Below are positions 6,270 to 42,342 of a stretch of 48,409 nucleotides of DNA, piece after piece. The notes beneath the pieces are model-generated. The model saw only the letters and a list, made by a program, of their open reading frames with translations. It had not been told where the DNA came from and did no database searches. Each line of letters opens with the position of its first letter. The first letter of the stretch is position 1. Source of the DNA: Actinomycetota bacterium (GTDB lineage Bacteria; Actinomycetota; Thermoleophilia; Solirubrobacterales; 70-9). The position numbers and the translations under genes were made by a program. The stretch lies in contig JAFDWO010000047.1 in NCBI GenBank assembly GCA_018268415.1, positions 1-48,409 of the forward strand. Direction: 5' to 3'.

Positions 6270-6278
6270 ATTGTATCC
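6270..6278 (-). promoter_or_regulatory. GGATACAAT box upstream of the UspA/nitroreductase genes
   Basis: On the minus strand this reads AAAAAGGATACAATACC. TACAAT fits an actinobacterial -10 box (TANNNT), and the full nonamer recurs exactly at 19315, 27722, 39707 and 42334. No clear -35 hexamer is seen. Confidence 0.6.
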
Positions 6279-6346
6279 TTTTTAGAAAGACGTACGCATA
6301 TTGTCTATTTATGTATCTTGCTTTTTTATAGATTTTTCTACATTTT

Positions 6347-6355
6347 GGATACATT
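6347..6355 (+). promoter_or_regulatory. GGATACATT box abutting the GntR-1 start
   Basis: The box lies in an AT-rich stretch and its TACATT (6350-6355) ends only four bases before the ATG at 6360. No ribosome site separates them, so the transcript is probably leaderless. The box faces its counterpart at 6270 in a divergent promoter region. Confidence 0.55.
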
Positions 6356-6359
6356 CGAT

Positions 6360-7094
6360 ATGCGCAAGGAGACCAAGCGGGAGAGTGCAGGCGGCGTGAC
6401 CGCGCTCCGTGACCGGCTCCGCGAGGCGATCGCCGCCGGCGAGATCCCCACCGATCAGAGCCGTACCCAGACCGACCTGGCCGAGCTTTTCGCCGTCAGT
6501 CGCACCCCCCTTCGCGAGGCCTTGCGGATGCTCGAGCTGGAGCAGCTGATCGTTCGCGAACCCAACGGCCGCTTTCGGGCCACCGACCTCTCGGCAGCCG
6601 AGGTCGAGGAGCTCGCGGTGACCACGATGATCCTCGAAGCCGCCGCCGCACGCCATACGGTCGACGGTCTGCTGGTCGCCGACCACGCCGCGCTGGAAGG
6701 CCTCTACGCCGAATCGCAGCGCCTGGCGGAAGTCGGCGAGTGGGACGCCTACGAGGTCGTCCATCGCGCCTTCCACGCGACGCTCACGCGCGACGTCGGA
6801 CCGATGCACATCGAGCAATTGAATCGCCTCTGGGACCAGGCATCGCGCTATCGGCAGGCATTCGCCCGCAGCCCCCAGGCGGAGCACCGTGAGGCCATCT
6901 CCCAGCGCGAGCACCGCCTGATCCTCGACACCGCGCTCGACGGGGACGCCGAGGGCACCGCCCGCCGCATCGCCCGCCACCACGCCCGTTGCACGGAGGA
7001 GATCGTCGCCCTGCTCGAGCCCGGATACGCGACCGGGCGACTCGACCTGACGCTGGCGATGGTCACCGACTTCTCCGCGCCGAGGCTGGTCTGA
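6360..7094 (+). CDS. GntR-family regulator, FCD subfamily (GntR-1)
   Basis: This 244-residue protein has a winged helix at residues 12-80 (GVTALRDRLREAIAAGEI, TDLAELFAVSRTPLREALRM, LIVREPNGRFRATDL). An all-helical FCD effector domain follows with spaced histidines (EVVHRAFH, ISQREHRL, RRIARHHARC) that in the family bind a metal or carboxylate ligand. It is closely similar to GntR-3 (20182-20934) over its whole length and more distantly to GntR-2. The ATG at 6360 is chosen because upstream sequence is promoter DNA. It overlaps the FMN reductase start (TGATG). It is a plausible sensor of a pathway intermediate acting on GGATACAAT boxes. Confidence 0.9.
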   Translation: MRKETKRESAGGVTALRDRLREAIAAGEIPTDQSRTQTDLAELFAVSRTPLREALRMLELEQLIVREPNGRFRATDLSAAEVEELAVTTMILEAAAARHTVDGLLVADHAALEGLYAESQRLAEVGEWDAYEVVHRAFHATLTRDVGPMHIEQLNRLWDQASRYRQAFARSPQAEHREAISQREHRLILDTALDGDAEGTARRIARHHARCTEEIVALLEPGYATGRLDLTLAMVTDFSAPRLV

Positions 7095-7705
7095 TGGGGC
7101 CGGCGGAGGTGCGGATCGCAGCCTTTGGCGGCAGCCTGCGGGCGGGCTCCTTGAACGGGGTGCTGCTCGATCACGCGGTTCGCATCGCCGAGCCCCTCTG
7201 TGAGATCTCGAGACTCGAGATCCGCGACCTACCCCTCTACAACCAGGATCTGGACCCGACCATGGGCGACGGCGACACGCCCGCGGCGGTCGCCGCCTTC
7301 CGCAACGCCATCGATGCAGCCGATGGCGTGATGATCGTCTCGCCCGAGTACAGCTGGAGCGTACCCGGCCCGACCAAGAACGCGATCGACTGGGTCTCGC
7401 GCCCGGCCTTCGACACGCCCCTGACCGGCAAGCCGGTCCTGCTCGCCGGCGCCTCGCCGGGACCCGCGGGGACCGGCCGCGCCCAACTGCACCTCCGGCA
7501 GATCCTCCACTCCCTGCGCGCGCTAGCCCTGGTCAACGATCTCCAGGTCCCCTTCGCCCACTCGACGATCACCCCGGACGGCGGCCTCGATCCGCAACTC
7601 GAGCTGCGGATCGGCGAGCTCCTCAGGGAGCTGGTCGACGATGCACGCGCGGCCTCGGCGGCCGACCTCGTCGGGCGCTACCGAGTCCCACCGGCAACAG
7701 CCTGA
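7094..7705 (+). CDS. NAD(P)H-dependent FMN reductase
   Basis: A 203-residue flavodoxin-like protein of the FMN_red family. FGGSLRAGSLNG (residues 10-21) forms the FMN phosphate loop and SPEYSWSVPGPTKNAIDW is the typical second flavin segment. It should transfer electrons from NAD(P)H to free FMN. Its ATG overlaps the GntR-1 stop, giving a two-gene unit. In this setting it could supply FMNH2 to the HsaA-like monooxygenase at 17-18 kb, which as a two-component enzyme needs a separate reductase and has none beside it. That pairing is inferred. Confidence 0.85.
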   Translation: MGPAEVRIAAFGGSLRAGSLNGVLLDHAVRIAEPLCEISRLEIRDLPLYNQDLDPTMGDGDTPAAVAAFRNAIDAADGVMIVSPEYSWSVPGPTKNAIDWVSRPAFDTPLTGKPVLLAGASPGPAGTGRAQLHLRQILHSLRALALVNDLQVPFAHSTITPDGGLDPQLELRIGELLRELVDDARAASAADLVGRYRVPPATA

Positions 7706-7735
7706 CCCACGCGGCAGCGGGCGCCGCGGGTCAGG
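7701..7735. terminator. Bidirectional terminator hairpin
   Basis: CCTGACCC-AC-GCGGC pairs with GCCGCGGGTCAGG around a seven-base loop: 13 base pairs with a two-base bulge. It overlaps the stop codons of the convergent FMN reductase and PaoC-like genes. No T-tract is present. Confidence 0.6.
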
Positions 7736-12355: not shown

Positions 12356-12538
12356 TCAGGGCCTCGGAGGAGAGGCCGCCGTCACCGCCGCGAGCAGTCC
12401 GCCAAGGTCGCCGACCTCGTTGGCGAGCAGGAGGACGAGGCGTGCGAGGAATGCCTCACCCTCTTCCGGCGGCAGGCCGTCCCAGGTCTCGATCAGGCGC
12501 GCCATCAGTCGGTCCCCATCATCGGTGGTCAGCGGCAC
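12356..12538 (-). CDS. DUF2783-family small protein
   Basis: A 60-residue acidic helical protein with the core GLPPEEGEAFLARLVLLLAN followed by EVGDLGGLLAAV. This matches DUF2783, which is usually encoded next to FAD-dependent aromatic monooxygenases. It starts at GTG 12538, inside the last codons of the monooxygenase, where the GAGGAGGAG run coding for its terminal Glu residues doubles as a strong ribosome site. The molecular role of the family is unknown; a helper or stability factor of the monooxygenase is an inference from the conserved pairing. Confidence 0.75.
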   Translation of the reverse strand: MPLTTDDGDRLMARLIETWDGLPPEEGEAFLARLVLLLANEVGDLGGLLAAVTAASPPRP

Positions 12539-14232
12539 AGCTCCTCCTCCTTCTTCTTCGGCTGCTCGGCACGAGCAAGGATCTGGTCGACGATCGCGAC
12601 AGCGCCGACGGGTGAGACCTCACGGACTCGGCCGGCGATGTGCATGTCAGGCCGCAGGACGTAGCAGGCCCCGGCGTCGGCGCCATAGCGGTCGAACAAC
12701 GCCCCGGTCGTATCGACGGCCACCTCCACCCCGGTCACGCTCAACTGCGGGTCGCGGGTGACGATCACATGATCGAGGTCGAAGCCGCGGACCTCGTCCG
12801 TCGGAGGGTCGGACGGATCCCAGGTTTCGGTGAAGTAGAGCGCCGTGAAGTTGCCCTTCCATAGATCGAGCAGGTGGGCGTCGCGCCCCGCAGTCGTCAC
12901 CGGAGCGTTGTAGGCGGCGGCACCGGGTTGGACGCCTGCGTCGAAATCGTCGCGGTCGGCAAGGACCAGCGGCCCGTCCGCGTACACGATGGGCACGCTC
13001 GGCCGACCCGTGTTGATCAGCCGCCGGGCGAACTCTTGCTCACGCGCGAGGCGCAACACCGCGTCACGGAAGAGGCGTTCACCCTTGGACTGGGGATTGA
13101 TGAACGACTCGCTCTGCAAGGCGCAGCGAGAGTTCTCGAGCGCCGCCGCCAGGCGCTCGTCCGCATAGGTGTCGAGCAGACCGTAGCCCGCGTCGCCGGC
13201 GAGGACCGCGGTCAACTTCCAGGCCAGGTTCTCGGCGTCCTGAACGGCGCTGTTGCCGCCACGGGCGCCGAATGCCGGCAGCTCGTGGGCGGCGTCGCCG
13301 ACGAAGATCACGCGACCGTGCAGGAACGGACTGAGCACCTTGCGCTTCATCCGCACCCGCCCGATCGAGACGATCTCATAGTCCGTCCTGCCCTCGAGCA
13401 ACGTCGTGACACGCTCGCGAACCCGCTCCTCGGCGATCTCCTCGTCGGGATCGACGTGGGCGATCTGCCAGTCGTAGCGGATGCAGCCATCCGCCATCTG
13501 GTGGGCGATGGCGGCACCGCCATTGAGTTCGGGAAGGTTGAGCCAGAAGCGTCGCTGCAGCAGCTCGCCGAGATCGACCCGGACGTCGGCATAGGCCCAG
13601 TAGTCGTTGAGGTAGGTGAGCGAAGGCTCGAGCGCGAGGAACTTGGCGACGGAGCTGTGGGCGCCGTCACAGGCGACCACCCAGTCCGCCTCTAGCGAAT
13701 AGGGGCCCTCCGGGGTCTCGACCGAAAGCTCGACCGAGTCCTCCCGCTGGTCGAGCCCGACGACGGTGCTCTGCCAGCGAACGTCGACCTGGTCGAGTTC
13801 CTCGACTCGTTCGTACAGGTACTGCTCGACGTGGAACTGCTGGAGGTTCAGGAAGGCGGGCCATTTCTGCTTCTGGTCCGGCTGGATCACGTAGTGGTTC
13901 AACAACTCGCGGTCGTCGAAGATTCGCCCTTCGTTCCAGGTGACCGCCTTGGCGGCAATCTTGTCGGCGACACCGAGCCGATCGAAGATCTCGATCGTGC
14001 GCGCCGCGTAGCCGACCCCGCGCGAAAGCACGCCCTCGGCACCGCTGGTCGCATCGCGGTCGATCACCACCACCTCGACCCCGCGCTGCCCGAGGTCGGC
14101 GGCCAACGCGAGGCCCGCGAGGCCGGCTCCGACGATCACGCAGCGGTAACGAAAGGTCCGCGTGGCCCCGCCGGAGAGCTCCGGCGGGGTCTTGAACGAA
14201 TACTCCCTCAGGTCGTACCCGACCTCCGTCAT
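12529..14232 (-). CDS. FAD-dependent aromatic (phenol-type) monooxygenase
   Basis: A 567-residue group A flavoprotein monooxygenase. GAGLAGLALAADLGQRG binds the ADP part of FAD, VACDGAHS is the DG motif for FAD and NAD(P)H, and FVGDAAHELPAFGARGGNSA then VQDAENLAWKL is the GD motif. A C-terminal thioredoxin-like domain of about 150 residues is typical of the PheA/TfdB/MhpA branch. It should hydroxylate a phenolic ring ortho to an existing hydroxyl using NAD(P)H and O2, giving a catechol-like product for the extradiol dioxygenase of the same operon. The ATG at 14232 overlaps the hydratase stop (ATGA). Confidence 0.92.
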   Translation of the reverse strand: MTEVGYDLREYSFKTPPELSGGATRTFRYRCVIVGAGLAGLALAADLGQRGVEVVVIDRDATSGAEGVLSRGVGYAARTIEIFDRLGVADKIAAKAVTWNEGRIFDDRELLNHYVIQPDQKQKWPAFLNLQQFHVEQYLYERVEELDQVDVRWQSTVVGLDQREDSVELSVETPEGPYSLEADWVVACDGAHSSVAKFLALEPSLTYLNDYWAYADVRVDLGELLQRRFWLNLPELNGGAAIAHQMADGCIRYDWQIAHVDPDEEIAEERVRERVTTLLEGRTDYEIVSIGRVRMKRKVLSPFLHGRVIFVGDAAHELPAFGARGGNSAVQDAENLAWKLTAVLAGDAGYGLLDTYADERLAAALENSRCALQSESFINPQSKGERLFRDAVLRLAREQEFARRLINTGRPSVPIVYADGPLVLADRDDFDAGVQPGAAAYNAPVTTAGRDAHLLDLWKGNFTALYFTETWDPSDPPTDEVRGFDLDHVIVTRDPQLSVTGVEVAVDTTGALFDRYGADAGACYVLRPDMHIAGRVREVSPVGAVAIVDQILARAEQPKKKEEELCR

Positions 14233-15095
14233 TGCTCGTCTCCTGAATTCTCGGCGATCGAGTCGCCGTCGTCTGCTAACCAAGGCGTCTTGAAGGCTGC
14301 GTCGCGGGCCTCGATGAAGGCCCGCAGTCCATCGTTCTGGAGCACGTCACGCAGCCTGGTGCCGTCGGCCGACCGCGCCTGCCCGGCGGTCGACTGGAGG
14401 ACCGCCTTCAGGGCGCGCGTGTAGATCGCACCCTGGTTCCAGCCCATCATCTCCATCATCCCGTCGACGTTCTGCTTGTTCAGCATCACCCCGGTCGGCG
14501 GCATCGCCGCGATCCGCGCCGCCAGCGCGTCGACGCGCGCGGCGAAGCGATCCACCGCCACGGTCTCGAGGACGAACCCGATCCGCTCGGCGCGGTGGGC
14601 GCTGATCGTTTCGCCGGTCAGCATCAGGAACTTCGCCCACTGCGGACCCACGAGGTAGGGAAAGGGACCGCCGGTCGGGCTCCCCATGCGGCCCTCGATC
14701 AACCCGAACCGGGCCGCTTCGGAGGCGACCACGAGGTCGCACTGGCCGGCGAGCATCATCCCGGCGCCGTAACAGATCCCGTTCACCGCAGCGATCACCG
14801 GCTTGCGCGCCCCCCGCAGCCGATCGAGGGCGGTGTCGAAGCGGCCGTAGAACTCGTACCACTGCTCGGCGGTCTCCTCGGTCACGCCCGACATGTCGCC
14901 GCCGGCGGAGAAGGCGCGCCCGCGGCCGGTCAGGATCGCGCAGCGGATCTCCGGGTCGGAGTCGATCTCCTCGAAGGCGTCGACCAGCCCGTCGAGCACC
15001 CCGTAGCCGATCGGGTTGAGGTGGGCCGGATCGTCGAGCGCGATCTCGGCGACCCCCGCCAGTCGACCGGTGGTGAAGGAGACGATCCCGGCCAC
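14229..15095 (-). CDS. Enoyl-CoA hydratase/isomerase (crotonase) family protein
   Basis: A 288-residue crotonase-fold protein. Oxyanion-hole segments are GRAFSAGGDMSG and NGICYGAGMMLAGQCDLVVA, and a Glu occupies the catalytic helix (FGLIEGRMGSPTGG). It should hydrate an enoyl-CoA, or cleave or rearrange a CoA thioester, after CoA activation by the adjacent CoA-transferase. GTG at 15095 immediately follows the CoA-transferase stop, so the two are co-translated. Crotonases also include aryl-CoA lyases, so the exact reaction is open. Confidence 0.88.
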   Translation of the reverse strand: MAGIVSFTTGRLAGVAEIALDDPAHLNPIGYGVLDGLVDAFEEIDSDPEIRCAILTGRGRAFSAGGDMSGVTEETAEQWYEFYGRFDTALDRLRGARKPVIAAVNGICYGAGMMLAGQCDLVVASEAARFGLIEGRMGSPTGGPFPYLVGPQWAKFLMLTGETISAHRAERIGFVLETVAVDRFAARVDALAARIAAMPPTGVMLNKQNVDGMMEMMGWNQGAIYTRALKAVLQSTAGQARSADGTRLRDVLQNDGLRAFIEARDAAFKTPWLADDGDSIAENSGDEQ

Positions 15096-16265
15096 TCAGA
15101 TCACCCCGCGGCCGGCGAGCTCCTCGAGCTCCTCGGAGGACAACCCCAGCAGTTCGCCGTAGACCTCGGCGTTGTGCTCGCCGACCGCCGGCCCGGCGTG
15201 GCGGATGGTCGTGTCATAGGCGGCAAAGCGGATCCACGGCCGCAGCATCTTCACCGTCCCGGCATCCGGGTGCTCGACCTCGAGCATCGCCCCGCGGGAC
15301 CTAAGGTTCTCGTCTTCGACCGCCTCGCCGACGGTGCGCACCGGCGCTCCAGGCAGGTTGAGGTCGCGGAACACCCGCCACAGTTCGGCGCGGGTCATCG
15401 TCCGCACCCACTTCTGGGCTTCGGCCATCAGCTGCTCGAAGTTGGTGCGGCGATTGTCGATCGAATCGAAGCGGGGATCGTCGACGATCTCGGGATGTCC
15501 CATCGACTCGCAGAGTGCCGACCAGCGCTCCGGCGAGAGATCGGGCAGGTGGAAGGCGACGTAGCCATCGGCGCACTCGACCGGCGCCGATGCCACCGGC
15601 TGGTGCTCGAACAGCGTGTGCAGCGAGCTGACCATGAAGCCGAGCTGTGCTTCCTGCATCGCGACGTCGACATAGTCGCCCTCACCGGTGCGTTCGCGCG
15701 CATAGAGGGCGGCGAGGATGCCGAGGGCCATCGAGACTCCAGCCCCCTCGTCGCCGATCCCCAGCGGTTTCGAACCGCGCGCCGCAGGCGTCGTCCAGCC
15801 GGAGTCGGTCCAGCCGGATATCGCCTGGATCAGCATCGCGAAGGCCGGGACGTCGACGTAGGGGCCACTCGACCCGTAGCCGCTCGACCGGGCGTAGATC
15901 ACGTCGGGCCTGATCTCGCGCAGGTGCTGATAGCCGAACCCGAGCCTGTCCATCACCCCGGGCGAGAAGTTCTCGACGACAACGTCGCTCTTCGCCACCA
16001 GTTTTCCGAAGATCTCCTTGCCCGCCTCGGATTTGAGGTTGAGCGTGATGCAGCGCTTGTTGGCGTTGACGACCAGCGACTCGTAGCCGTCGCGCCCCGC
16101 ATCGGTCGGCATCCAGGCGTGGCGAAACCGGTCGCCGGCCCCGTGCTCGACCTTGAGCACGTCGGCGCCCATGTGGGCGAGGAGCATCGTGCAAAAGGGA
16201 CCGTTGAGGACGTGCGTCAGGTCGAGGATCCGGGTGCCTGCCAGCGGGCCGGTGTTCGCGATCAT
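15096..16265 (-). CDS. CaiB/BaiF (class III) CoA-transferase
   Basis: A 389-residue protein from ATG 16265, with AGGCGG 13 bases upstream; an ATG at 16289 lies inside the preceding gene and is less likely. It opens LAGTRILDLTHVLNGPFCTM and contains ADVLKVE, GDRFRHAWMP, the NANKRCITLNLKSEAGKEIF block and LGIGDEGAG, in which D172 is the expected catalytic aspartate of class III transferases. The enzyme would move CoA between carboxylic acids and thereby activate a pathway acid for beta-oxidation-type steps by the neighbouring hydratase, acyl-CoA dehydrogenase and thiolase. Confidence 0.9.
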   Translation of the reverse strand: MIANTGPLAGTRILDLTHVLNGPFCTMLLAHMGADVLKVEHGAGDRFRHAWMPTDAGRDGYESLVVNANKRCITLNLKSEAGKEIFGKLVAKSDVVVENFSPGVMDRLGFGYQHLREIRPDVIYARSSGYGSSGPYVDVPAFAMLIQAISGWTDSGWTTPAARGSKPLGIGDEGAGVSMALGILAALYARERTGEGDYVDVAMQEAQLGFMVSSLHTLFEHQPVASAPVECADGYVAFHLPDLSPERWSALCESMGHPEIVDDPRFDSIDNRRTNFEQLMAEAQKWVRTMTRAELWRVFRDLNLPGAPVRTVGEAVEDENLRSRGAMLEVEHPDAGTVKMLRPWIRFAAYDTTIRHAGPAVGEHNAEVYGELLGLSSEELEELAGRGVI

Positions 16266-16272
16266 CAGGTCT

Positions 16273-17064
16273 CTACCGCCTTTCGCCATCAGGTTCGTCG
16301 TCGATCAGCGCCACCGCGCGCGTCCAGCCCGCCGAGCCGCCCCTGACGTTGACCGGGAAGCAGATAACCGTGAAGCCCGCGTCCGGAAGGCGCTCGAGGC
16401 CACTCAGCTTCTCCAGCTGGCAGTAGCCACGCTCGCGGCCTGACTTGTGGCCCTCCCAGATGATCGAGGGATCCCCATCGCGTTCAAAACGCTTCAGCGT
16501 GGCGCTGAACGGGGCATCCCAGCTCCAGGCGTCGGTACCGACCACCCGCACTCCCTGCTCGGTGAGATGCAACGTCGCTTCGCGCCCGAAACCGCATCCG
16601 GCATGGATGTAGTCGTCGTGCCCGAAGCGGGCGCCTGCCCGCGTGGCGCAGACGACGATGTCGAGTGGCTGGATCACGTGGCCGATGCGCTCCAGCTCGA
16701 CATCGATGTCGGCGGCGGTCACCACGTAGCCGTCGGGCATCTCGCGAAAGTCCATCCGCACGCCTGGCCGCATGCACCAATGGAGCGGGATCTCATCGAT
16801 CGCCAAGGCCGGCTCGCCGCCGTCCATGGTCGGGTGGTAATGCCAGGGAGCGTCCATATGCGTGCCGTTGTGGGTGGTGATCCGAACCCGCTCCGCCGAC
16901 CAGCCCTTCCCCTCGGGCAACTGCTCCGGCGTGAGTCCTGGGAACGCTGCGGCGAGCTCTGCGGCCCCGGCCTCATGGTCGACGTAGTCGATCTCGACCT
17001 TCTGGAAGGCAGGATCCGCCGGAATGTCGTTGGCGAGCGGGACGGAGAGATCGAGGATCTGCAT
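16273..17064 (-). CDS. Cyclase-family (kynurenine formamidase-like) hydrolase
   Basis: A 263-residue member of the putative-cyclase family (PF04199). The metal site HNGTHMDAPWH (residues 65-75) matches the family signature HxGTHxDxPxH. Proteins of this family hydrolyse formamides, lactones or cyclic products and often occur in aromatic and isatin pathways. In this operon it could open a lactone or hydrolyse a ring-cleavage product. The ATG at 17064 lies seven bases after the monooxygenase stop. Confidence 0.87.
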   Translation of the reverse strand: MQILDLSVPLANDIPADPAFQKVEIDYVDHEAGAAELAAAFPGLTPEQLPEGKGWSAERVRITTHNGTHMDAPWHYHPTMDGGEPALAIDEIPLHWCMRPGVRMDFREMPDGYVVTAADIDVELERIGHVIQPLDIVVCATRAGARFGHDDYIHAGCGFGREATLHLTEQGVRVVGTDAWSWDAPFSATLKRFERDGDPSIIWEGHKSGRERGYCQLEKLSGLERLPDAGFTVICFPVNVRGGSAGWTRAVALIDDEPDGERR

Positions 17065-17071
17065 CACCGGC

Positions 17072-18232
17072 TCACCACATCTGGCCGTTGGGCTCAAGAC
17101 CGAGCCGCACGCGGCCATAAGACTCGGCCTGTTCGTCCCAATTGAGGGCAACTTGCATCGAGCCGGCGTGCACGTCGCGCATGAAGCGCTGGATCGGGTC
17201 GACTTCGAAGAGCGACGAGGCGCCGCCGCCCCGGGCGATGGACATCGTCGCCTGGTAACAGAGGTTGACCACGTAGCCGTGGTCACGGCGGAAGCGGACC
17301 CGGTCCTCGTCGGTGAAGGTGTCGCCGCGCGCTCCGCGGTCGATCAGCTCGCGGATATCGCTCCGAGCGAGGGCGCGAGCGGCGTCGAGCTGTACCGCGG
17401 CCTCGGCGATCCGCGACTGTGGCCCGACCATCTTCGCGGCCGGCCTGTCACCGAACGAGGAGACACGGGTGCGAGTTGCCTGCCCGTAGGCGTCAAGGGC
17501 CCCTTGCGCCATCCCGATCACCGGCGCCACGAGGCCCCACGGGGTGAGGGACGGGGCCGGCACCCCATAGGAGCCCCGACCGTCGCTCGGCGGCTCGACC
17601 GCGGACCCGAGCGGCACGTATCGATGGCCCGGCACGAAGATCGGCTCATCGATGACGATGTCGTTGCTGCCGGTCCCGCGCAGGCCGGAGACGTGCCAGG
17701 TGTCCTCGATCCGGAACTCCGCCCGCGGCACGAGCAGCATCACCGGAGCCTCGAACTCAGGGACGGCTGCGCCCAGCATCGACCAATCGGCGTGCAGGCA
17801 ACCGCTGGAGTACTGCCAGCGGCCACTCAACTTCCAGCCACCGTCCACCGACTCCACCTTCGCCCCACGGGGGTTGAAGGCCGAGCTCGTCCAGACGTCG
17901 CCACGGGCGCCGAGGCATTCCTCCTGGGCCGCCTCTGGGGCGATGCCGAGCTCCCATGCTTGCACGGCGCAGACCGAGTACACCCAGCCGGTCGACCCAC
18001 AGGCAGAGGCAAGCCTCCAGGAGATCTCGAAGAAGGAGTCGAAGTCGAGGCCGAAACCGCCCCAGCGGGTGGCCTGCATCACGCGATGAAGGCCGGCACC
18101 GCGGATCTCGTCGATCGTCTCCGCCGGCAGGCGACGGTCGCGGTCGACCTGCAACGCTCGCCCGGCGACGGCCGGAAGCAGCGCGTCGACGGCGACGAGG
18201 AGCTCCTCGTCGAGGGTTGCCGTCGCACTCAC
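17072..18232 (-). CDS. HsaA/HpaB-like flavin-dependent monooxygenase (acyl-CoA dehydrogenase fold)
   Basis: A 386-residue protein with the acyl-CoA dehydrogenase fold used by two-component FMNH2/FADH2-dependent hydroxylases. Telling segments are RWGGFGLDFDSFFEISWRLA, CGSTGWVYSVCAVQAWELG, FNPRGAKVESVDGGWKLSGR, WHVSGLRGTGSNDIVIDE and the C-terminal ARGGGASSLFEVDPIQRFMR. This resembles HsaA, the 3-HSA hydroxylase of steroid catabolism. It needs reduced flavin from a separate reductase; the nearest candidate is the FMN reductase at 7094. The GTG at 18232 overlaps the dioxygenase stop as GTGA, so hydroxylation and ring cleavage are tightly co-expressed. Confidence 0.87.
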   Translation of the reverse strand: MSATATLDEELLVAVDALLPAVAGRALQVDRDRRLPAETIDEIRGAGLHRVMQATRWGGFGLDFDSFFEISWRLASACGSTGWVYSVCAVQAWELGIAPEAAQEECLGARGDVWTSSAFNPRGAKVESVDGGWKLSGRWQYSSGCLHADWSMLGAAVPEFEAPVMLLVPRAEFRIEDTWHVSGLRGTGSNDIVIDEPIFVPGHRYVPLGSAVEPPSDGRGSYGVPAPSLTPWGLVAPVIGMAQGALDAYGQATRTRVSSFGDRPAAKMVGPQSRIAEAAVQLDAARALARSDIRELIDRGARGDTFTDEDRVRFRRDHGYVVNLCYQATMSIARGGGASSLFEVDPIQRFMRDVHAGSMQVALNWDEQAESYGRVRLGLEPNGQMW

Positions 18233-19239
18233 GACCGCACCAGCGCCGCTTCCGCCGAATCGTCGGAGGTGCCGACCACCCCGGCGCTTTGCGTCGAGAT
18301 GCCGGGCGGAATGTTCACCATCGACACCGCGGCCATCCCGATCTCGGTCCGGTAGGCGTTGTTGGAGCCTTGCTCGGGGCTCCAGATCACCGTCTCCCAA
18401 TCCGGCACGTAGTTGCGATAGCCGCCGGAGTTGAGCTCGTAGCGGAGGCCGACCGGGTCGCGGAAGTAGAGGTAGTTCTGCTCACCGATGCCGTGCTGAC
18501 CGGGCCCGGTGTCCACCTCATGCCCGTGCTCGAGGATGAACTTCGCCCCTTCGGTCAGGTCATGATTCGTCTCGACCCAGAAGGCGACGTGGTGGAGTCT
18601 GCCGCTCTGCCCCTCGAAGTCCTGGATGCAGCCGAGGTCGTGCGCCTTCTCGTTGTTGGTCATCACCGCGAACACCCACGGCGCGCCAGGCTCGGGCTCG
18701 ACCGCGGCCATCGTGCGAAGGCCCATGTTCTCGCCGGTCCAGCCGGCGAAGCCACGTACGTCGGGGGCCGTCACGGTCACGTGGTCGAGGATCCGCACCG
18801 CCAGCCCGCGTCGATGGTTGCGTTGCGGGCGCTCCGGATAGGTCGACTTCTCGGCTGCGGGCACCTCTGCTCGCTCGACCTCCCAGAAGATCTCCTGTCG
18901 ATGCTGACCGGGTCCCGTGAACCGGAAGGCGCGGCCGTGGCCGACGGCGCCATCGACCCACTCTCCCTGGGTGCCGGAGGCCTCGATGCGGGAAACGACC
19001 TCCGCGAGCTGCTCCGGCCCCTCGGCGCGCCAGGCCATGTGACCGAGTCCGGGCTCGGCGGCTGCCGTGAGCACCAGGCTGTAGAGGTAATAGTCGCCCC
19101 AGCAACGCAGGTAGACCGAGTCGCCTTCCTCGCGGACGATGTCGAGGCCCAGGATCTGGTCGACGTACTCGACCGATTTCTCCAGGTCGGGCGTCAGGAG
19201 CTCGACGTGACTCAGCGGCGACAGCAGGCGTTTCGGCAT
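18229..19239 (-). CDS. Type I extradiol (VOC) ring-cleavage dioxygenase
   Basis: A 336-residue two-domain vicinal-oxygen-chelate protein, the length of a catechol 2,3-dioxygenase plus a C-terminal tail. The Fe(II) facial triad is in the second domain: H153 (LDHVTVTAP), H216 or H217 (RLHHVAFWVE) and E268 (RYELNSGG), at spacings close to XylE. It would cleave a catechol next to the hydroxyls with O2, giving a semialdehyde. The ATG at 19239 has GGGAGAAGCC before it; it is the first gene of the operon, about 70 bases behind a GGATACAAT box. The last 50 residues (from about 285) are not typical of XylE and may cap the active site. Confidence 0.92.
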   Translation of the reverse strand: MPKRLLSPLSHVELLTPDLEKSVEYVDQILGLDIVREEGDSVYLRCWGDYYLYSLVLTAAAEPGLGHMAWRAEGPEQLAEVVSRIEASGTQGEWVDGAVGHGRAFRFTGPGQHRQEIFWEVERAEVPAAEKSTYPERPQRNHRRGLAVRILDHVTVTAPDVRGFAGWTGENMGLRTMAAVEPEPGAPWVFAVMTNNEKAHDLGCIQDFEGQSGRLHHVAFWVETNHDLTEGAKFILEHGHEVDTGPGQHGIGEQNYLYFRDPVGLRYELNSGGYRNYVPDWETVIWSPEQGSNNAYRTEIGMAAVSMVNIPPGISTQSAGVVGTSDDSAEAALVRS

Positions 19240-19314: not shown

Positions 19315-19323
19315 ATTGTATCC
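19315..19323 (-). promoter_or_regulatory. GGATACAAT box driving the ring-cleavage operon
   Basis: The minus strand reads CCAAAAAGGGATACAATCTG, resembling the 6270 site. TACAAT as -10 puts the start of transcription near 19307, about 70 bases before the dioxygenase ATG. No clear -35 is seen. Confidence 0.6.
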
Positions 19324-19460: not shown

Positions 19461-20189
19461 ATGAGCGGCACCGTCGCACTGATCAGAGATCGCCTGCGAG
19501 ACGCGATCCTCTCCGGCAAACTGCCGCCGGGCCAGCCGGCGACCCAGGCTGATCTCGCCGAACGATTCGGCGTCAGCCGCACGCCGCTGCGCGAGGCGCT
19601 GCGAATGCTTGAGCTGGAAGGCCTGGTGGTGCGGGGGAGCAACGGGCGCTTCCGCATCAGCCCGCTCTCGATCGGTCAGATCGAGGACCTCGCCGTCATG
19701 AGGATCAATCTGGAGGCCGTCGCGGTGACGCTGACGGTGCCGCAGTTCGGCCATGCCGAGCACGCCAAACTCGAGGGCCTGCTCGCCCAGATCGAGCGCT
19801 ATGCGCTGGTCGAGGACTGGGTGGGTATCGAAACCCCCCATCGCGACTTCCACCAGATGTTGGTCAGCGGTGCGGGCGACCGCGTCACCGCCCTCCTCGC
19901 CCAGCTCTGGACCCACGCCACCCGGTACAGGACCGTCGCCTTCCAGCAGCTCGAAGGGAACGCCGCCGGCTGGGGAACGAGCCAGCTTGAGCATCGGGCG
20001 ATCGTCGCCGCCTACGAGGCCTACGACGCCGAGATGGCCGCGGGCTGGATCGCCGCGCATATCGCCCGCGCAGCGATCCTGGTGGCCGCGCATATCGATC
20101 CCGATCATCCGGTGACCCGGGTCCACGAATCCCTACAGCGCTACACCGGCACACCCGACCTGCCCGAGGTACCCTCCGTTGATGAGTGA
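19461..20189 (+). CDS. GntR-family regulator, FCD subfamily (GntR-2)
   Basis: A 242-residue FadR-type regulator: winged helix at residues 1-70 (VALIRDRLRDAILSGKLPPG, DLAERFGVSRTPLREALRML) and an FCD domain with ETPHRDFH and LEHRAIVAAYEA histidines. It is divergent from the ring-cleavage operon and translated with GntR-3, whose ATG lies inside its last codons. It is the most divergent of the three paralogues in this window. No strong ribosome site precedes the ATG at 19461. It likely represses the operon until a pathway metabolite binds. Confidence 0.9.
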   Translation: MSGTVALIRDRLRDAILSGKLPPGQPATQADLAERFGVSRTPLREALRMLELEGLVVRGSNGRFRISPLSIGQIEDLAVMRINLEAVAVTLTVPQFGHAEHAKLEGLLAQIERYALVEDWVGIETPHRDFHQMLVSGAGDRVTALLAQLWTHATRYRTVAFQQLEGNAAGWGTSQLEHRAIVAAYEAYDAEMAAGWIAAHIARAAILVAAHIDPDHPVTRVHESLQRYTGTPDLPEVPSVDE

Positions 20190-20934
20190 GCAGCCCCCCG
20201 CCGGCCCTCCTGACAAGGGTCGCCGCAACACGGGGGTCACCGGCCTCCGTGATCGCCTGCGCGACGCGATCGTCGCCGGCGAGATCCCCGCCAACGCGGG
20301 CCGGACGCAAGCCCAGCTCGCCGAGTTCTTCGACGTCAGCCGGACCCCGCTCCGAGAGGCGCTGCGGATGCTCGAGCTCGAGCACCTGATCATCCGCGAA
20401 CCGAATGGCCGCTTCCGCGCCGCCGACCTGTCGGCGGACGAGATCGAGCAACTGGCGGTCACCGCCATCACGCTCGAGTCGGCCGCCGTCCGACTGACCG
20501 TTCCCGATCTGACGATCGCCGACGACGCCCGGCTGGAGGGCCTGCTCGCCGAAAGCCTGCGGCTGGCCGAAGTCGGCGAGTGGAATGCCTACGAGGTCCC
20601 CCATCGCGCCTTCCACATGCTGCTGGCCCGCAACGTCGGGACCATGCACACGGAGCAGCTGAACCGTGGCTGGGATCAATCGATCCGCTATCGGCAGGCC
20701 TTCGGGCGGGTAGCCAACGCCGCCGGTCGCGACAGCGCGCCCCAACGCGAACATCGCGAGATCCTCGACGCTGCCCTTGCTCGCGACGCCGACGCAACCG
20801 CGCGCCTGGTCGCCCTACATCATCGACGTGGGATGGGCGAGATCGCGACCAGCCTAAACCCCGACTACGAGACGAGCACTCTCGACAAGACCATCGAAAT
20901 CATCACCGAAGACCACCACCCGCAGCTGGCCTAG
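20182..20934 (+). CDS. GntR-family regulator, FCD subfamily (GntR-3)
   Basis: A 250-residue FCD-type GntR protein, very similar to GntR-1 (shared RTPLREALRMLELE, REPNGRFRA, RLAEVGEW, YEV-HRAFH and RYRQAF segments). The winged helix spans about residues 18-88. The ATG at 20182 overlaps the GntR-2 stop by eight bases; a TTG one codon earlier is less likely. Its 3' end overlaps the convergent FAH-family gene by 32 bases. Two regulators encoded as one unit suggest heteromeric or layered control, but that is inference. Confidence 0.9.
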   Translation: MSEQPPAGPPDKGRRNTGVTGLRDRLRDAIVAGEIPANAGRTQAQLAEFFDVSRTPLREALRMLELEHLIIREPNGRFRAADLSADEIEQLAVTAITLESAAVRLTVPDLTIADDARLEGLLAESLRLAEVGEWNAYEVPHRAFHMLLARNVGTMHTEQLNRGWDQSIRYRQAFGRVANAAGRDSAPQREHREILDAALARDADATARLVALHHRRGMGEIATSLNPDYETSTLDKTIEIITEDHHPQLA

Positions 20935-21856
20935 GGTCCGCGGCGTCGGCCTTTCGCGGCGCGGCGACACAGCGGCTGTGCATGGTGCCGAGGTAGGTGA
21001 TCTCGCCCGCGATCTCGTCACCTGGCCGCAGCCAGCGGTTGCCATGGTGGCCGGCGTTGCCCCCGGGCGAGCCGGTGAGCAGGACGTCACCGGGCCACAG
21101 TTCGGCGACGGCGGAGGAGTAGGCGACGAGCTCGTCGACGCCGAAGATGATGTCGTCGACCAGCTCGTCCTGCATCGTTTGACCGTTGACGGCAAGGCTG
21201 ATCCGTAGTTGGCGATAGTCGTCGATGAAATCGCGCGGAACGAGAAAGGGCCCGGTCGGCAGGAACCCGGGGCGACCCTTGGACATAAGGAAGTCGGTGA
21301 GCGGCAGGTCGGCGCGCGACATCACGTCGCGGGTGCTGATGTCGTTGCTCATCGTGTAGCCGGCGACGCAGCTCATCGCCCGATCGCGCGGAACGTTCTG
21401 GGCCCGTCGGCCGATCACCACCGCGAGCTCGAGCTCCCAGTCGTGCTCCACCCCTGGCCCCCACAGCACGATGTCGTCGCAGGCCCCCGACATCGCGCTG
21501 GCGGGCACCGCGAAGACGAACGGTTCGCCCGCGTCGGCGCGCGCCTCCGCCACCTGCTCGCCATCGGTGCCGACGATCTCCTGCACGTGGCGGCGATAGT
21601 TGGCCCCGGCACAGAGGATCTGCCCGATCGGCTGCACGGGGGGCAGCGGCCGCAAGTCGGCAAGGGGCACCGCCTCATCCAGACCCCCCGCGGCGATCTC
21701 GTGCAACAGCTCCAGCGATCGGTCCCACTCGACCAGCATTCCCCTGGTGGTCGCGGCGGGCCCGAACCGCGGCCGCAGATCGCCGACGGCATCCCCGACC
21801 ACGATCCCCGGAAAAGTCACGCCTGAGGCAGTTTCGAAGGAGCCGAGGCCGAACAT
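20903..21856 (-). CDS. Fumarylacetoacetate hydrolase (FAH)-family protein
   Basis: A 317-residue FAH-family enzyme with an N-terminal cap domain (about 1-75) and the catalytic C-terminal domain starting ILCAGANYRRHVQE. Metal ligands are expected in HDWELELAVVIG (the E-x-E pair) and SNDISTRD. LPTGPFLVPRD and TGSPGGNAGHHG complete the active site. Family members hydrolyse acylpyruvates and fumarylacetoacetate, or isomerise and decarboxylate 2-oxo-heptene-dioates, so it is a natural step after extradiol cleavage. TACTCT of a GGATACTCT box lies eight bases before the ATG, suggesting a leaderless mRNA. Confidence 0.9.
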   Translation of the reverse strand: MFGLGSFETASGVTFPGIVVGDAVGDLRPRFGPAATTRGMLVEWDRSLELLHEIAAGGLDEAVPLADLRPLPPVQPIGQILCAGANYRRHVQEIVGTDGEQVAEARADAGEPFVFAVPASAMSGACDDIVLWGPGVEHDWELELAVVIGRRAQNVPRDRAMSCVAGYTMSNDISTRDVMSRADLPLTDFLMSKGRPGFLPTGPFLVPRDFIDDYRQLRISLAVNGQTMQDELVDDIIFGVDELVAYSSAVAELWPGDVLLTGSPGGNAGHHGNRWLRPGDEIAGEITYLGTMHSRCVAAPRKADAADPRPAAGGGLR

Positions 21857-21864
21857 ACCGGCAT

Positions 21865-21895
21865 AGAGTATCCCATCAGCTATTTAGGGTACATT
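21865..21895. promoter_or_regulatory. Divergent pair of GGATAC-type boxes between the FAH and XdhC genes
   Basis: GGATACTCT (minus strand, 21873-21865) faces the FAH gene and GGGTACATT (plus, 21887-21895) faces the XdhC gene. Each supplies a TANNNT -10 (TACTCT, TACATT) placed 6-8 bases from a start codon. The two nonamers start 22 bases apart, the same spacing as the pair at 33062/33084. Confidence 0.55.
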
Positions 21896-25010: not shown

Positions 25011-25981
25011 GCCGCGCCCTCGATTCCCCGCGGGGCGATCCGGGTGCTTAGGACCACCGCGATCACCAGGACCGCGCCGTAGACGACGTCCAGCCATTGG
25101 GGCGGGATATCGATGGTCAGGAGGAGGTTCTGGATCAAGAAGATGCTGGTCGCGCCGAGCAGAGCGCCGGCAAGGCCGCCGCGGCCGCCGCCGATCGGCG
25201 TCCCACCGAGCGAGACGGCGGCGATCGCGATCAGCGAGTACCGCAGGCCGATCGTGGAGTCGGCCGAGTGGAGGACGCCGGTCAGCGCGATCCCGCCGAG
25301 CGCGGCGAACATCCCGCCGAGCGCGTAGGCGATCACGCGGACGGTTGCGACGTTGACGCCAGAGGCAAATGCGGTCGGGGCGCTGGCGCCGACCGAGAAC
25401 ATCGTCGTGATCAGCGGCGTCCGGCGCAGGAGCAGCCAGAGGATCGGCGGCGCCGCGATCAGTAGCAGCGCCCCGGGCACCGGTCCGATCTGGCCGAGCA
25501 GATGGTCGGTCCAGTTGGATGGCGCTTCCTGTGGCGTGGCAAGGACCTGCTGGTTGATGCCGCTGATCACGAAGAGCGCGCACAGCCCGGTGATGATCGC
25601 CGGCACCCGCAACAGCGAGATCGCCATCCCGCTCAAGGCCCCGGTCGCGGCACCGAGGCACAAGAGGATCGGGATCGCCAGGACCGGAGCGCCCAGGCCG
25701 GTGGGAAGCAGCACGACGACCAGGAAGATGTTGCTGAGGCTGAGCGTCGGGCCGATCGAGAAATCGAGACCGCCACTGACCACCGAGGGCACGGTCGCCA
25801 TCGCGACGAGCGCGAACGGCGCCAGATTGGCGAGGGTCTGCGGCAACGTCCCACCGGAGACGAAGCCGGGGTCCTTGATCAGGTTCACCACGAACAGGAC
25901 GGCCGCCAGCACTCCGGTGAAGATGTAGGTGCGGCTGCGCTGCTCGGCGGCCATGCCGCGCAGGGAGGAGAGGCTACGCAT
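25007..25981 (-). CDS. RbsC-type ABC transporter permease A
   Basis: A 324-residue BPD_transp_2 permease with eight or more membrane segments. DFSIGPTLSLSNIF matches the LSVG motif of the family and RRTPLITTMFSVGASAPTAFASGVN the cytoplasmic coupling loop. The ATG at 25981 is chosen because AGGAGG, formed by the last Glu-Asp codons of the ATPase, lies six bases upstream; an ATG at 25987 is too close. It overlaps both the ATPase stop region and the permease B start, so all three are coupled. Confidence 0.9.
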   Translation of the reverse strand: MRSLSSLRGMAAEQRSRTYIFTGVLAAVLFVVNLIKDPGFVSGGTLPQTLANLAPFALVAMATVPSVVSGGLDFSIGPTLSLSNIFLVVVLLPTGLGAPVLAIPILLCLGAATGALSGMAISLLRVPAIITGLCALFVISGINQQVLATPQEAPSNWTDHLLGQIGPVPGALLLIAAPPILWLLLRRTPLITTMFSVGASAPTAFASGVNVATVRVIAYALGGMFAALGGIALTGVLHSADSTIGLRYSLIAIAAVSLGGTPIGGGRGGLAGALLGATSIFLIQNLLLTIDIPPQWLDVVYGAVLVIAVVLSTRIAPRGIEGAA

Positions 25982-27721: not shown

Positions 27722-27751
27722 ATTGTATCCATATCTTTGATTCGCCGTCAA
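27722..27751 (-). promoter_or_regulatory. TTGACG-N18-TACAAT promoter with GGATACAAT box (ABC operon)
   Basis: On the minus strand TTGACG (27751-27746) is followed by 18 bases and TACAAT (27727-27722), a near-consensus vegetative promoter. GGATACAAT covers the -10. This is the clearest evidence that the recurring box includes a -10 element. The gap 27752-27826 holds nothing else I recognise. Confidence 0.7.
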
Positions 27752-29463: not shown

Positions 29464-29507
29464 AGAGTATCCATTCGTTCGGGCTGGTAACAATATTTGG
29501 ATACAAA
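29464..29507. promoter_or_regulatory. Divergent GGATAC boxes between the CrtI-like and binding-protein genes
   Basis: GGATACTCT (minus, 29472-29464) points to the oxidoreductase and GGATACAAA (plus, 29499-29507) to binding protein 1, about 68 bases before its ATG. The nonamers start 35 bases apart. Confidence 0.55.
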
Positions 29508-33061: not shown

Positions 33062-33092
33062 ATCGTATCCTTTTATGACTTTCGGGTACATT
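33062..33092. promoter_or_regulatory. GGATAC-type box pair upstream of the alpha/beta hydrolase
   Basis: GGATACGAT (minus, 33070-33062) points to the hydrolase. GGGTACATT (plus, 33084-33092) points into a stretch with no recognisable plus-strand gene. Nonamer starts are 22 bases apart as at 21865/21887. The rest of 32982-33237 shows nothing I can identify. Confidence 0.5.
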
Positions 33093-37664: not shown

Positions 37665-37714
37665 AGAGTATCCCTGGCGGGAATGGGTAGCCTGCCGGTT
37701 ATAATGGATACAAA
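37665..37714. promoter_or_regulatory. GGATAC-type box pair upstream of SnoaL-2
   Basis: GGATACAAA (plus, 37706-37714) lies 75 bases before the SnoaL-2 ATG. A second box, GGATACTCT on the minus strand (37673-37665), has no minus-strand gene to serve, which hints that at this site it acts as an operator. Confidence 0.55.
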
Positions 37715-38314: not shown

Positions 38315-38359
38315 ATCGCTTCACCTCTGAACCGGTCGCCCGAGACCCGGGCGGCGGGA

Positions 38360-39706: not shown

Positions 39707-39736
39707 ATTGTATCCATTTATGCCAGAAGGCGTTAA
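39707..39736 (-). promoter_or_regulatory. TTAACG-N18-TACAAT promoter with GGATACAAT box (binding protein 2)
   Basis: On the minus strand TTAACG (39736-39731), 18 bases and TACAAT (39712-39707) form a good vegetative-type promoter with the same geometry as at 27722. The leader would be about 60 bases. Confidence 0.65.
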
Positions 39737-39766
39737 AAGTGCCCTACGGATCCCTAGGAGATATGG

Positions 39767-40540: not shown

Positions 40541-40550
40541 GCGCACCGAT

Positions 40551-40578
40551 GGCCGCCCGCGCTGTGCGGCGGGCGGCC
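40551..40578. terminator. Terminator hairpin between convergent SDR genes
   Basis: GGCCGCCCGC pairs perfectly with GCGGGCGGCC across an eight-base loop, between the stops of SDR-3 and SDR-4. Confidence 0.7.
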
Positions 40579-40591
40579 CGCTGTCGCCGGG

Positions 40592-41425
40592 CTAGACGTT
40601 CTCCATGAAACCGGCGTCGATCGGAAGCCGGACGCCGGTGACGTAGCGAGACTCGTCGGACGTCAGGTAGACCACGGCGTTCGACACGTCGACCGGCTCG
40701 ATCCAAGGGATCGGGAGGGCGTTGTACGAGGCGACGCTCTCCGCCATTTCCTCCTGGGTGGGGTTCTCGACCTCGGGAAAGAAGGCGCTCCGAATCGCTG
40801 GGTTGTCGATCATCCTGGTGATCACGCTGCTCGGATGGATCGAGTTCACCCGGATGAAATGGGGCGCGAGCTCGTTGCAAAGCGTCCGCATCAGGCCGAT
40901 CACGGCATGCTTCGCCATGTTGTAGTGCGCCTGGTTGTAGTACCCCTTCAGCCCGGCCGTGGAACTGATGATGACGATCGATCCCCCCTTCTCCTGCTCG
41001 ATCATCAGCGGCACCACCGCCTTGCAGGTATTGAACGTCCCGTGCATCTGCACGTCAATCACCTCGTGGTACTTCTGGTCGTCGAGTTCGACGAACGGAG
41101 CCGTGGACCAGACGCCGGCGTTGGTCACGGCGGCGGAGATGCCGCCGAGCTCGGCGGCGCCGCGTGCGGCGACGTCTTCGAGGGCCGCCCGGTCGCGAAC
41201 GTCGGCCCTGTCGATGACGACCCGGCGGCCGAGCCCCTCGACCGCCGCCGCGGTCTCCTCGAGCTCCTCCCAGGTGCCGAGCTCGTAAGGGACGGTCTCG
41301 ATCTCCTCGCAGATGTCGACCGCGATGATGTCGGCGCCCTCCTCGGCCATCCGGATCGCGTGGGAGCGACCCTGCCCTCTCGCCGCCCCAGTGATGAATG
41401 CGACCTTCCCGTCTAGGCGTCCCAT
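40592..41425 (-). CDS. Mycofactocin-type SDR oxidoreductase (SDR-4)
   Basis: A 277-residue SDR opening MGRLDGKVAFITGAARGQGR, SHAIRMAEEGADIIAVDICE, the signature of the mycofactocin-dependent (carveol-dehydrogenase-like) SDR subfamily. An inserted segment of about 20 residues follows strand 2 (TVPYELGTWEELEET); these insertions cover a tightly held NAD(H). TNAGVWS, ISSTAGLKG, the catalytic YNMAK and RYVTGVRLPIDAG are present. In that family the NADH does not dissociate and is re-oxidised by the peptide-derived cofactor mycofactocin. No mycofactocin biosynthesis genes are in the window. It is the second gene after the acetoacetate-decarboxylase-like gene, 54 bases apart. Confidence 0.88.
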   Translation of the reverse strand: MGRLDGKVAFITGAARGQGRSHAIRMAEEGADIIAVDICEEIETVPYELGTWEELEETAAAVEGLGRRVVIDRADVRDRAALEDVAARGAAELGGISAAVTNAGVWSTAPFVELDDQKYHEVIDVQMHGTFNTCKAVVPLMIEQEKGGSIVIISSTAGLKGYYNQAHYNMAKHAVIGLMRTLCNELAPHFIRVNSIHPSSVITRMIDNPAIRSAFFPEVENPTQEEMAESVASYNALPIPWIEPVDVSNAVVYLTSDESRYVTGVRLPIDAGFMENV

Positions 41426-41479
41426 CTCGTCTCCTTCCTTGTCCCAGCTCTTCGCTGCCTCGGTTTCGCCGGCGGCGAT

Positions 41480-42280
41480 TCAGTCGATGGTGCGGACGGT
41501 CTCAAGGTCATCCACCGTGCAGGCGAAGGTGAAGCGGTACCCCCGATCGACGCTGGTCGGCGCGAGGATCGCGTGCTCCTCACCGGCGGCCGGGAAGAGC
41601 TCGAGCTCCGCCGGGCCCTCCCAGGCATCGGCGATCAGATGGTCGCGGCTCAGCGACTTCACCAATTCGTGCACTGCCGGTTCCTCGTGGCGGCCGGACG
41701 CGAGGCGGGGGAAGTGCCGCACGTTGACGAGCGCCGGTGCCGAGTGAAGCGAGCCCGTCTCGCTCGGCCGCTCGAGCGTGACCCGAGCCCGCGAGATGCG
41801 CGTGCCACGGGCTGAGCAGGTTGCCCCGAAGCGCGAGCCCACGGCGACCCCAGGGGCCGCTCGAGATGCGAGCGGGTAGGCGCGGGTCACCCAGACTTCG
41901 CCGAGCTTCTTCGGAAAGCCCTGAATCCAGCCGCGGGCGAGGGCGAAGTCCTTCTCCACCCAGATGAAGGTGCAGATCGTCACCTCCTCGCCGTCGCAGA
42001 GAGCGTTCACCACCAGGTAGAACTCGCGGAACTGGCTGCGAACCGGATCGAGGAACTCCTCCCCGTCCTCGGTGCAGCTCTGCCAGTCGGCAAAGATCGC
42101 CGCGCAGCGGCCGGCGTCGGAATGCGGTTCAAGTCCGGACGGCAACAGCGAAACGACCGCCGCTGGGTCGGCGTGGAAGTCGACAACGAGAAAATCCCCG
42201 ACGTAGTGCCAAGGCGGCGGAGGCACGAGGCTGGCGACGCCGGTTGAAGTGCGAGGGACGGAATAGCCCTTGAGCGACAT
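41480..42280 (-). CDS. Acetoacetate decarboxylase-like (ADC superfamily) protein
   Basis: A 266-residue ADC-superfamily protein. The Schiff-base lysine motif is intact: GWIQGFPKKLGEVWVTR with K124-K125 at the position of the K115-K116 pair of acetoacetate decarboxylase. FREFYLVVNALCDGEEVTIC and FIWVEKDFALARG are other family stretches. True ADCs decarboxylate acetoacetate; relatives act as aldolase-dehydratases or on ring-cleavage products. The ATG at 42280 has AGGAA six bases upstream; a much longer open frame upstream is spurious. It and SDR-4 form an operon behind the box at 42334. Confidence 0.85.
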   Translation of the reverse strand: MSLKGYSVPRTSTGVASLVPPPPWHYVGDFLVVDFHADPAAVVSLLPSGLEPHSDAGRCAAIFADWQSCTEDGEEFLDPVRSQFREFYLVVNALCDGEEVTICTFIWVEKDFALARGWIQGFPKKLGEVWVTRAYPLASRAAPGVAVGSRFGATCSARGTRISRARVTLERPSETGSLHSAPALVNVRHFPRLASGRHEEPAVHELVKSLSRDHLIADAWEGPAELELFPAAGEEHAILAPTSVDRGYRFTFACTVDDLETVRTID

Positions 42281-42333
42281 GAGTTTCCTTTCAGTCCTGC
42301 TGAACAGCACCCAGAGTGGCCCCAATTCCTCTA

Positions 42334-42342
42334 ATTGTATCC
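42334..42342 (-). promoter_or_regulatory. GGATACAAT box of the ADC-like/SDR-4 operon
   Basis: The minus strand reads TATATGGATACAATTAG; TACAAT is the likely -10, giving a leader of about 48 bases. This is the last box of the series. The adjoining CCATATACATATGG is nearly palindromic. Confidence 0.6.

What the first reader, a model, noticed from the sequence alone, without database searches (positions are those of the whole stretch)
6270..42342. A GGATACAAT box repeated 14 times defines a candidate catabolic regulon
The nonamer GGATACAAT occurs exactly five times (ends at 6270, 19315, 27722, 39707, 42334) and close variants nine more times (6347, 21865, 21887, 29464, 29499, 33062, 33084, 37665, 37706), all intergenic. 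Twelve of the 14 are oriented toward a downstream gene; the exceptions are 33084 (plus) and 37665 (minus), which have no gene to serve. They precede the ring-cleavage operon, the ABC operon, both binding proteins, the FAH hydrolase, the XdhC chaperone, GntR-1 and several enzymes. At 27722 and 39707 the box sits at the -10 of TTGACG/TTAACG-N18-TACAAT promoters. The rest of each box (GGA and the paired inverted boxes) exceeds a simple -10 and may be an operator for the GntR paralogues or mark a special sigma factor.
Basis: partly seen in the sequence, partly recalled or inferred. Interest (0 to 1): 0.75.

Follow-up and report, generated by a model that had tools for sequence, protein, structure and literature searches.

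The report
Operator boxes of a GntR regulon
A short DNA word repeated in front of genes for breaking down ring compounds in an actinobacterium is most likely the docking site of three sister repressor proteins encoded in the same gene cluster; it is a well-supported but ordinary local gene switch.

Summary
The box is real. GGATACAAT occurs 6 times in the 4.74 Mb draft genome, 5 of them in this 48 kb window. With up to one mismatch the window has 9, all intergenic; five of the listed 14 have two mismatches. It is no ordinary -10: TACAAT occurs 34 times genome-wide, preceded by GGA in 5 of 5 window cases and 1 of 29 elsewhere. Best reading: operator of the three FCD-type GntR paralogues in the window. 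In 26 tested relatives of these regulators, TGNATNCA palindromes occur 20 times in the 200 bp upstream (13 of 26), about 23-fold over the rest of the loci; 23 control palindromes reach at most 3. One clade has facing TGTATCC..GGATAC/GGATCC arms 18-19 bp apart; two window pairs have 19 bp. Two clusters in other genera with a GntR-2 relative have such sites beside ring-cleavage, FAH or gntR genes; six dioxygenase homologues without a detected GntR relative have none within about 1.5 kb. Closest analogue: Atu1419 (ATGTATACAT, PMC7797058). A special sigma factor is not supported. Binding, direction and inducer are untested. New member of a known kind.

The parts
6270..6278 (-). exact box GGATACAAT; 116 bp upstream of ORF 5698-6153 and in the gntR-1 promoter region
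6347..6355 (+). box GGATACATT (TGGATACA with the base before), 4 bp before the predicted ATG of gntR-1; faces 6270
19315..19323 (-). exact box between the ring-cleavage genes (start 19239 -) and gntR-2/gntR-3; downstream of a CTGCCA-N17-TATAGT promoter-like site
21865..21873 (-). box GGATACTCT, 8 bp before the FAH start; faces 21887 at 19 bp
21887..21895 (+). box GGGTACATT before xdhC; faces 21865
27722..27730 (-). exact box (TGTATCCA) before the ABC transporter genes, at the -10 of TTGACG-N18-TACAAT
29464..29472 (-). box GGATACTCT before the amine-oxidoreductase-like gene 27827-29404; faces 29499
29499..29507 (+). box GGATACAAA (TGGATACA) before binding protein 1 (29611-30837)
33062..33070 (-). 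box GGATACGAT before the alpha/beta-hydrolase gene; faces 33084 at 19 bp
33084..33092 (+). box GGGTACATT, outer arm of the 33062 pair; no gene of its own
37665..37673 (-). box GGATACTCT, upstream arm facing 37706; no gene of its own
37706..37714 (+). box GGATACAAA (TGGATACA) directly after a TATAAT; before the SnoaL-like gene 37790-38257
39707..39715 (-). exact box (TGTATCCA) before binding protein 2 (38360-39613 -)
42334..42342 (-). exact box (TGTATCCA) before the acetoacetate-decarboxylase-like gene 41480-42280
6360..7094 (+). GntR-1, FCD-type regulator
   Evidence: PF00392 and PF07729; clade with GntR-2/3
19461..20189 (+). GntR-2, FCD-type regulator
   Evidence: best BLAST match in the window for the G410 and G403 cluster regulators
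20182..20934 (+). GntR-3, FCD-type regulator, 62% identical to GntR-1
12529..19239 (-). ring-cleavage gene run (operon inferred): FAD monooxygenase, ECH, CoA-transferase III, cyclase, HsaA-like oxygenase, extradiol dioxygenase; presumed target
20903..21856 (-). FAH-family hydrolase; presumed target
23994..27488 (-). ABC transporter ATPase and two permeases; presumed target

Best explanation
Each box is one operator site for the three FCD-type (PF07729) GntR paralogues encoded in the window. In operator form the box reads TGTATCC(A), a one-base variant of the palindrome TGTATACA. With no inducer, a dimer on a box blocks transcription by covering the -10, the start site or the region just downstream. 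Where two boxes face each other (19, 19, 32, 38 and 74 bp apart) two dimers or a tetramer can act together. A pathway metabolite binding the FCD domain then releases the set: ring-cleavage genes, uptake system, accessory enzymes and gntR-1 itself. Shown by computation: box enrichment and location, paralogy, and this kind of site beside homologous regulators. Inferred: binding, repression rather than activation, sharing of one box by all three paralogues, and the inducer.
For: 5 of 6 genome copies lie in 1% of the genome (P about 7e-10). With up to one mismatch 9 of 47 lie in the window (P about 1e-9); the reversed control pattern gives 28 genome-wide. TACAAT is preceded by GGA in 5 of 5 window cases and 1 of 29 elsewhere. 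The three paralogues form one clade (0.996), share an identical VSRTPLREALRMLELE stretch, and are the only own-genome matches to GntR-1 at E 1e-25. TGNATNCA in the 200 bp upstream of homologues: 20 sites in 13 of 26, 5.2 kb, against 27 in 167 kb of the rest of those loci; 23 palindromes of the same composition give at most 3. Facing TGTATCC and GGATAC arms lie before L077, L169, L092 (18 bp) and, with GGATCC, L100 (19 bp). The pattern TGTATCCN10-16GGATACA occurs in 8 of 399 genomes of the class, its reversed control in none; 2 of the 8 lie directly upstream of such a gntR. G410: TGGATGCA and TGCATCCA 18 bp apart between a GntR-2 relative and ring-cleavage genes; G403: TGTATCCA before an FAH gene and TGGATACA before a GntR-2 relative outside the box clade. 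Six dioxygenase homologues without a detected GntR relative in the stretch read (G392 two copies, G066, G148, G393, G356) have no TGNATNCA within about 1.5 kb. R45, T46, R49 of Atu1419 align with R48, T49, R52 of GntR-1, invariant in 20 homologues.
Against: No binding data. 13 of 26 homologues show no TGNATNCA within 200 bp, and rows are not all independent (L083/L084; a four-member box clade). Upstream regions are richer in A+T than the rest; two rare control palindromes also show 11- and 14-fold ratios on counts of 3 and 2. Only 6 of 14 window boxes fit TGNATNCA fully. The strict facing pattern TGTATCCN10-16GGATACA has no match in the window's own genome, and window pair spacings vary. One TGCATGCA lies in a predicted gap about 2.4 kb from the second G392 dioxygenase, where my gene caller missed the dioxygenase itself; the G403 dioxygenase has no site near it. 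The paralogues could not be tied to the box one by one. Genes at 1096-5653 lack boxes except a weak TGGATTCA at 3995.
Confidence: 0.85

Rival explanations
1. The box is simply the ordinary -10 (TACAAT) of housekeeping-sigma promoters, with GGA by chance.
For: TTGACG/TTAACG lie 18 bp upstream at 27722 and 39707; 4 of 14 boxes have a -35-like match of 4/6 or better. 21865 and 6347 sit 8 and 4 bp before predicted start codons, where a leaderless -10 could lie.
Against: TACAAT outside the window is preceded by GGA in 1 of 29 cases. 29499 and 37706 end in AAA; at 37706 TATAAT is immediately upstream. GGATAC is kept better than TAnnnT. The boxes form facing pairs and recur at homologous regulators.
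Confidence: 0.05
2. The box is the -10 of an alternative (ECF or sigma-B-like) sigma factor dedicated to the cluster.
For: GGGTAC/GGATAC recalls sigma-B/sigma-F -10 elements (recalled, no call); the box is cluster-specific.
Against: No consistent -35 at 16-19 bp. None of the window proteins scanned against Pfam is a sigma factor. Boxes occur as facing pairs, two with no gene in one direction, and beside gntR genes in other genera.
Confidence: 0.03
3. The box is bound by another local regulator (three TetR-type and one Lrp/AsnC-type protein are encoded in the window), not by the GntR paralogues.
For: TetR genes at 34437, 35100 and 45200 and an AsnC-type gene at 257 exist.
Against: No box lies in the gaps before these genes, and the conservation of the site follows GntR homologues.
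Confidence: 0.05

Closest known systems
Atu1419 of Agrobacterium fabrum (VanR group, PF07729; PDB 6z74 series), PMC7797058 (abstract and passages seen)
   Same: FCD GntR repressor of an aromatic-acid catabolic region; 10-bp palindrome ATGTATACAT overlapping -10 boxes; more than one site per region; Arg, Thr, Arg DNA contacts align
   Different: Window box is TGTATCC(A), asymmetric by one base; facing pairs at 18-19 bp in relatives and two window pairs instead of 190 or 109 bp; three paralogues; Glu34 aligns with Gln37; first metal ligand aligns with His135 instead of Asn
GntR1/GntR2 of Corynebacterium glutamicum, PMC2230225 (abstract and passages seen)
   Same: Duplicated FCD GntR regulators that share the same binding sites across several catabolic genes
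   Different: 78% identical, two not three, gluconate genes, sites compared by the authors with the FadR-type consensus TNGTNNNACNA; activator at ptsG

Membership tests
GntR superfamily, FCD (FadR) subfamily | N-terminal PF00392 and C-terminal PF07729 above cut-off | tested here: met
   GntR-1, -2, -3 all above the cut-offs
VanR group (Atu1419-like) | six-helix FCD domain rather than seven (recalled, no call) | not tested
VanR group (Atu1419-like) | DNA-contact residues Arg45, Thr46, Arg49 (and Glu34) | tested here: inconclusive
   R48, T49, R52 of GntR-1 align and are invariant in 20 homologues; Glu34 aligns with Gln37, also invariant. The three are common in FCD proteins, so they do not single out the VanR group
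VanR group (Atu1419-like) | metal site Asn137, His141, His192, His214 | tested here: inconclusive
   His141 and His192 align with H139 and H185; His214 aligns with H208, next to the invariant H207; Asn137 aligns with H135
VanR group (Atu1419-like) | short TGTATACA-type palindromic operator | tested here: inconclusive
   TGNATNCA enriched at homologues; the window form is TGTATCC(A). By sequence only, binding not shown
VanR group (Atu1419-like) | tetramer and DNA looping | not testable with these tools
   needs purified protein

The most novel reading that the evidence does not exclude
Three paralogous FCD GntR repressors in one catabolic cluster read one shared asymmetric box, each with a different inducer, so that one set of about a dozen promoters integrates several pathway metabolites; facing boxes 18-19 bp apart are a subfamily operator architecture for paired dimers.
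Probability: 0.25. Interest if true: 0.45.

Novelty: new member of a known kind. Interest (0 to 1): 0.3.

Why it matters
It gives a concrete, testable operator (TGTATCC, sometimes in facing pairs) and regulator set for an uncharacterised ring-degradation cluster in an actinobacterium. It also points to an operator for a branch of FCD GntR proteins that can be looked for in other genomes. One narrow paper search (GntR, Solirubrobacter, operator) found nothing in this lineage.

Tried and rejected
Sigma factor or plain -10: see rivals. GTATCC-N8-20-GGRTAC over the own genome gave 5 sites: 2 in the window and 3 copies of one GC-rich sequence. An orthologous cluster in the same genus was not found by two searches: GntR-1 homologues outside the genome are at most 41% identical, and the ten other same-genus genomes listed (G001-G011 without G009's neighbours being searched further) gave no dioxygenase match at E 1e-70. 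Rfam (gathering) and tRNA scans of the window were empty.

Papers. GntR with GGATACA or TGTATCC listed 9 and 7 papers, seen as titles and abstract openings only; none of these speaks of such an operator. Searches gave 0; one search gave 1 and one search gave 3; one search gave 55, of which 12 were seen as listing.

Limits of my own counts. One search failed at its last step. In one search the motif filter left 14 of 29 FCD proteins aligned, so 'at most 33% identical' covers the 11 others there; one search is the wider check, though it scored 18 of 40 first-look candidates. Searches used 26 of the 31 outside homologues, leaving out four duplicates of rows kept (L094, L095, L130, L168) and L093. 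L089 counts there as a miss because its pair lies about 400 bp upstream of the gntR start. All intergenic calls rest on a home-made gene caller.
Full report
The observation. The 14 boxes are in the sequence. Five are exact, four have one mismatch and five have two. All are intergenic under my gene calls. The exact and one-mismatch classes are far beyond chance: 0 of 100 shuffles and 0 of 1547 permuted nonamers reach them. The five listed are only two words, GGATACTCT three times and GGGTACATT twice, and each is one arm of a facing pair.

Genome-wide test. The window is a whole contig (C102) of a 4.74 Mb draft in 160 contigs. GGATACAAT occurs six times, five in the window; the sixth, on contig C20, lies inside a predicted gene. 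With up to one mismatch there are 47 sites, nine of them in the window (P about 1e-9); the reversed control pattern gives 28 genome-wide. TACAAT is rare here: 34 sites. In the window it is preceded by GGA in 5 of 5 cases, elsewhere in 1 of 29 (Fisher P about 2e-5). So the box is specific to this cluster and is not the general -10.

The organism. A same-genus genome (G011) encodes a GntR homologue identical to one in the record of Solirubrobacterales bacterium 70-9, so the window probably comes from that actinobacterial order. This is an inference.

The genes. Pfam and NCBIfam place a ring-cleavage pathway in the window: an extradiol dioxygenase (related to catechol 2,3-dioxygenase, below that model's cut-off), an HsaA-like oxygenase component (also below cut-off), an FAD monooxygenase, an FAH hydrolase, a molybdenum hydroxylase with XdhC, a BKACE enzyme, an ABC uptake system with two binding proteins, and three FCD-type GntR regulators. 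The substrate was not determined.

The regulators. The genome has 29 FCD matches. The three in the window are 62% and 45% identical, are the only own-genome matches to GntR-1 at E 1e-25 and form one clade (0.996). Their recognition stretch is identical.

Relatives. Around 26 homologues I searched the 200 bp upstream for TGNATNCA, the symmetric frame of the box. There are 20 sites in 13 of 26, against 27 in 167 kb of the rest of those loci; 23 other palindromes of the same composition give at most 3. Two of those rare controls also show raised ratios (11 and 14) on counts of 3 and 2. Thirteen homologues have no site. One homologue clade (L077, L092, L100, L169; support 1.0) has facing TGTATCC and GGATAC arms, GGATCC in L100, 18 or 19 bp apart just before the gene. 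Two of the window's facing pairs (21865/21887 and 33062/33084) have 19 bp, with GGGTAC as second arm. The strict pattern TGTATCCN10-16GGATACA occurs in 8 of 399 genomes of the class, its reversed control in none. Two of the eight lie at such gntR genes, three inside predicted genes and three elsewhere. The window's own genome has no match to this strict pattern.

Homologous clusters. Eight of 232 genomes of the order, the own one included, have a dioxygenase match at E 1e-70. In G410, the same contig as the named Solirubrobacterales record L089, a GntR-2 relative (49.5%) stands divergent to dioxygenase, FAH and amidohydrolase genes, and the gap holds TGGATGCA and TGCATCCA 18 bp apart. In G403 a GntR-2 relative (47.6%), outside the box clade, has TGGATACA on its promoter side and TGTATCCA before the next FAH gene, on a contig with BKACE, amidohydrolase, cyclase and transporter genes. 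The G403 dioxygenase, about 12 kb away, has no site near it. Six other dioxygenase copies (G392 two, G066, G148, G393, G356) have no TGNATNCA within about 1.5 kb and no GntR relative detected in the stretch read. For three of these only 2.7 to 3.9 kb were read; and G392 has a box-clade gntR elsewhere in its genome. One TGCATGCA lies about 2.4 kb from the second G392 copy, in a stretch where my gene caller missed the dioxygenase.

Mechanism. The simplest account is repression at the promoter. Boxes overlap a possible -10 at 27722 and 39707, follow a TATAAT at 37706 and a promoter-like TATAGT at 19315, and lie 4 and 8 bp before predicted start codons at 6347 and 21865. A single sigma-factor element would not move about like this. 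Atu1419 of Agrobacterium, an FCD repressor of a hydroxycinnamic-acid region, binds ATGTATACAT overlapping -10 boxes and can loop DNA between two sites (PMC7797058, abstract and passages). Corynebacterium GntR1 and GntR2 show that duplicated FCD regulators can share sites (PMC2230225, passages). Binding, direction of regulation and inducer remain inferred here.

Verdict. A sound, cluster-specific operator regulon of a known kind. The exact box, the facing arrangement and the triplication of the regulator are the new details.

Noticed in passing
L036/L037/L038 (G000 contig C20), e.g. 138/159, 6683/6704, 30224/30245, 36062/36083, 39685/39706, 43234/43255, 49391/49412: A second catabolic contig (sarcosine-oxidase, dimethylformamidase-like and aldehyde dehydrogenase genes) has 8 pairs of GGATCC/GGATAC-type hexamers exactly 21 bp apart, 7 of them seen in predicted intergenic gaps, one beside its own FCD GntR gene (38856-39581); other spacings up to 60 bp occur three times.
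   Followed up: partly
own genome, many contigs: A dispersed repeat of the form GGATCCCTCACGGGTCTCCCACGGATCC and variants, often near contig starts.
   Followed up: no
window 3995-4002: A weak TGGATTCA site lies upstream of the acyl-CoA dehydrogenase gene 2605-3840; possibly a further regulon member.
   Followed up: no
GntR-1 residues H135, H139, H185, H207: Four histidines near the FCD metal-ligand positions are invariant in 20 homologues, where Atu1419 has Asn plus three His; the last one may be H207 or H208.
   Followed up: partly
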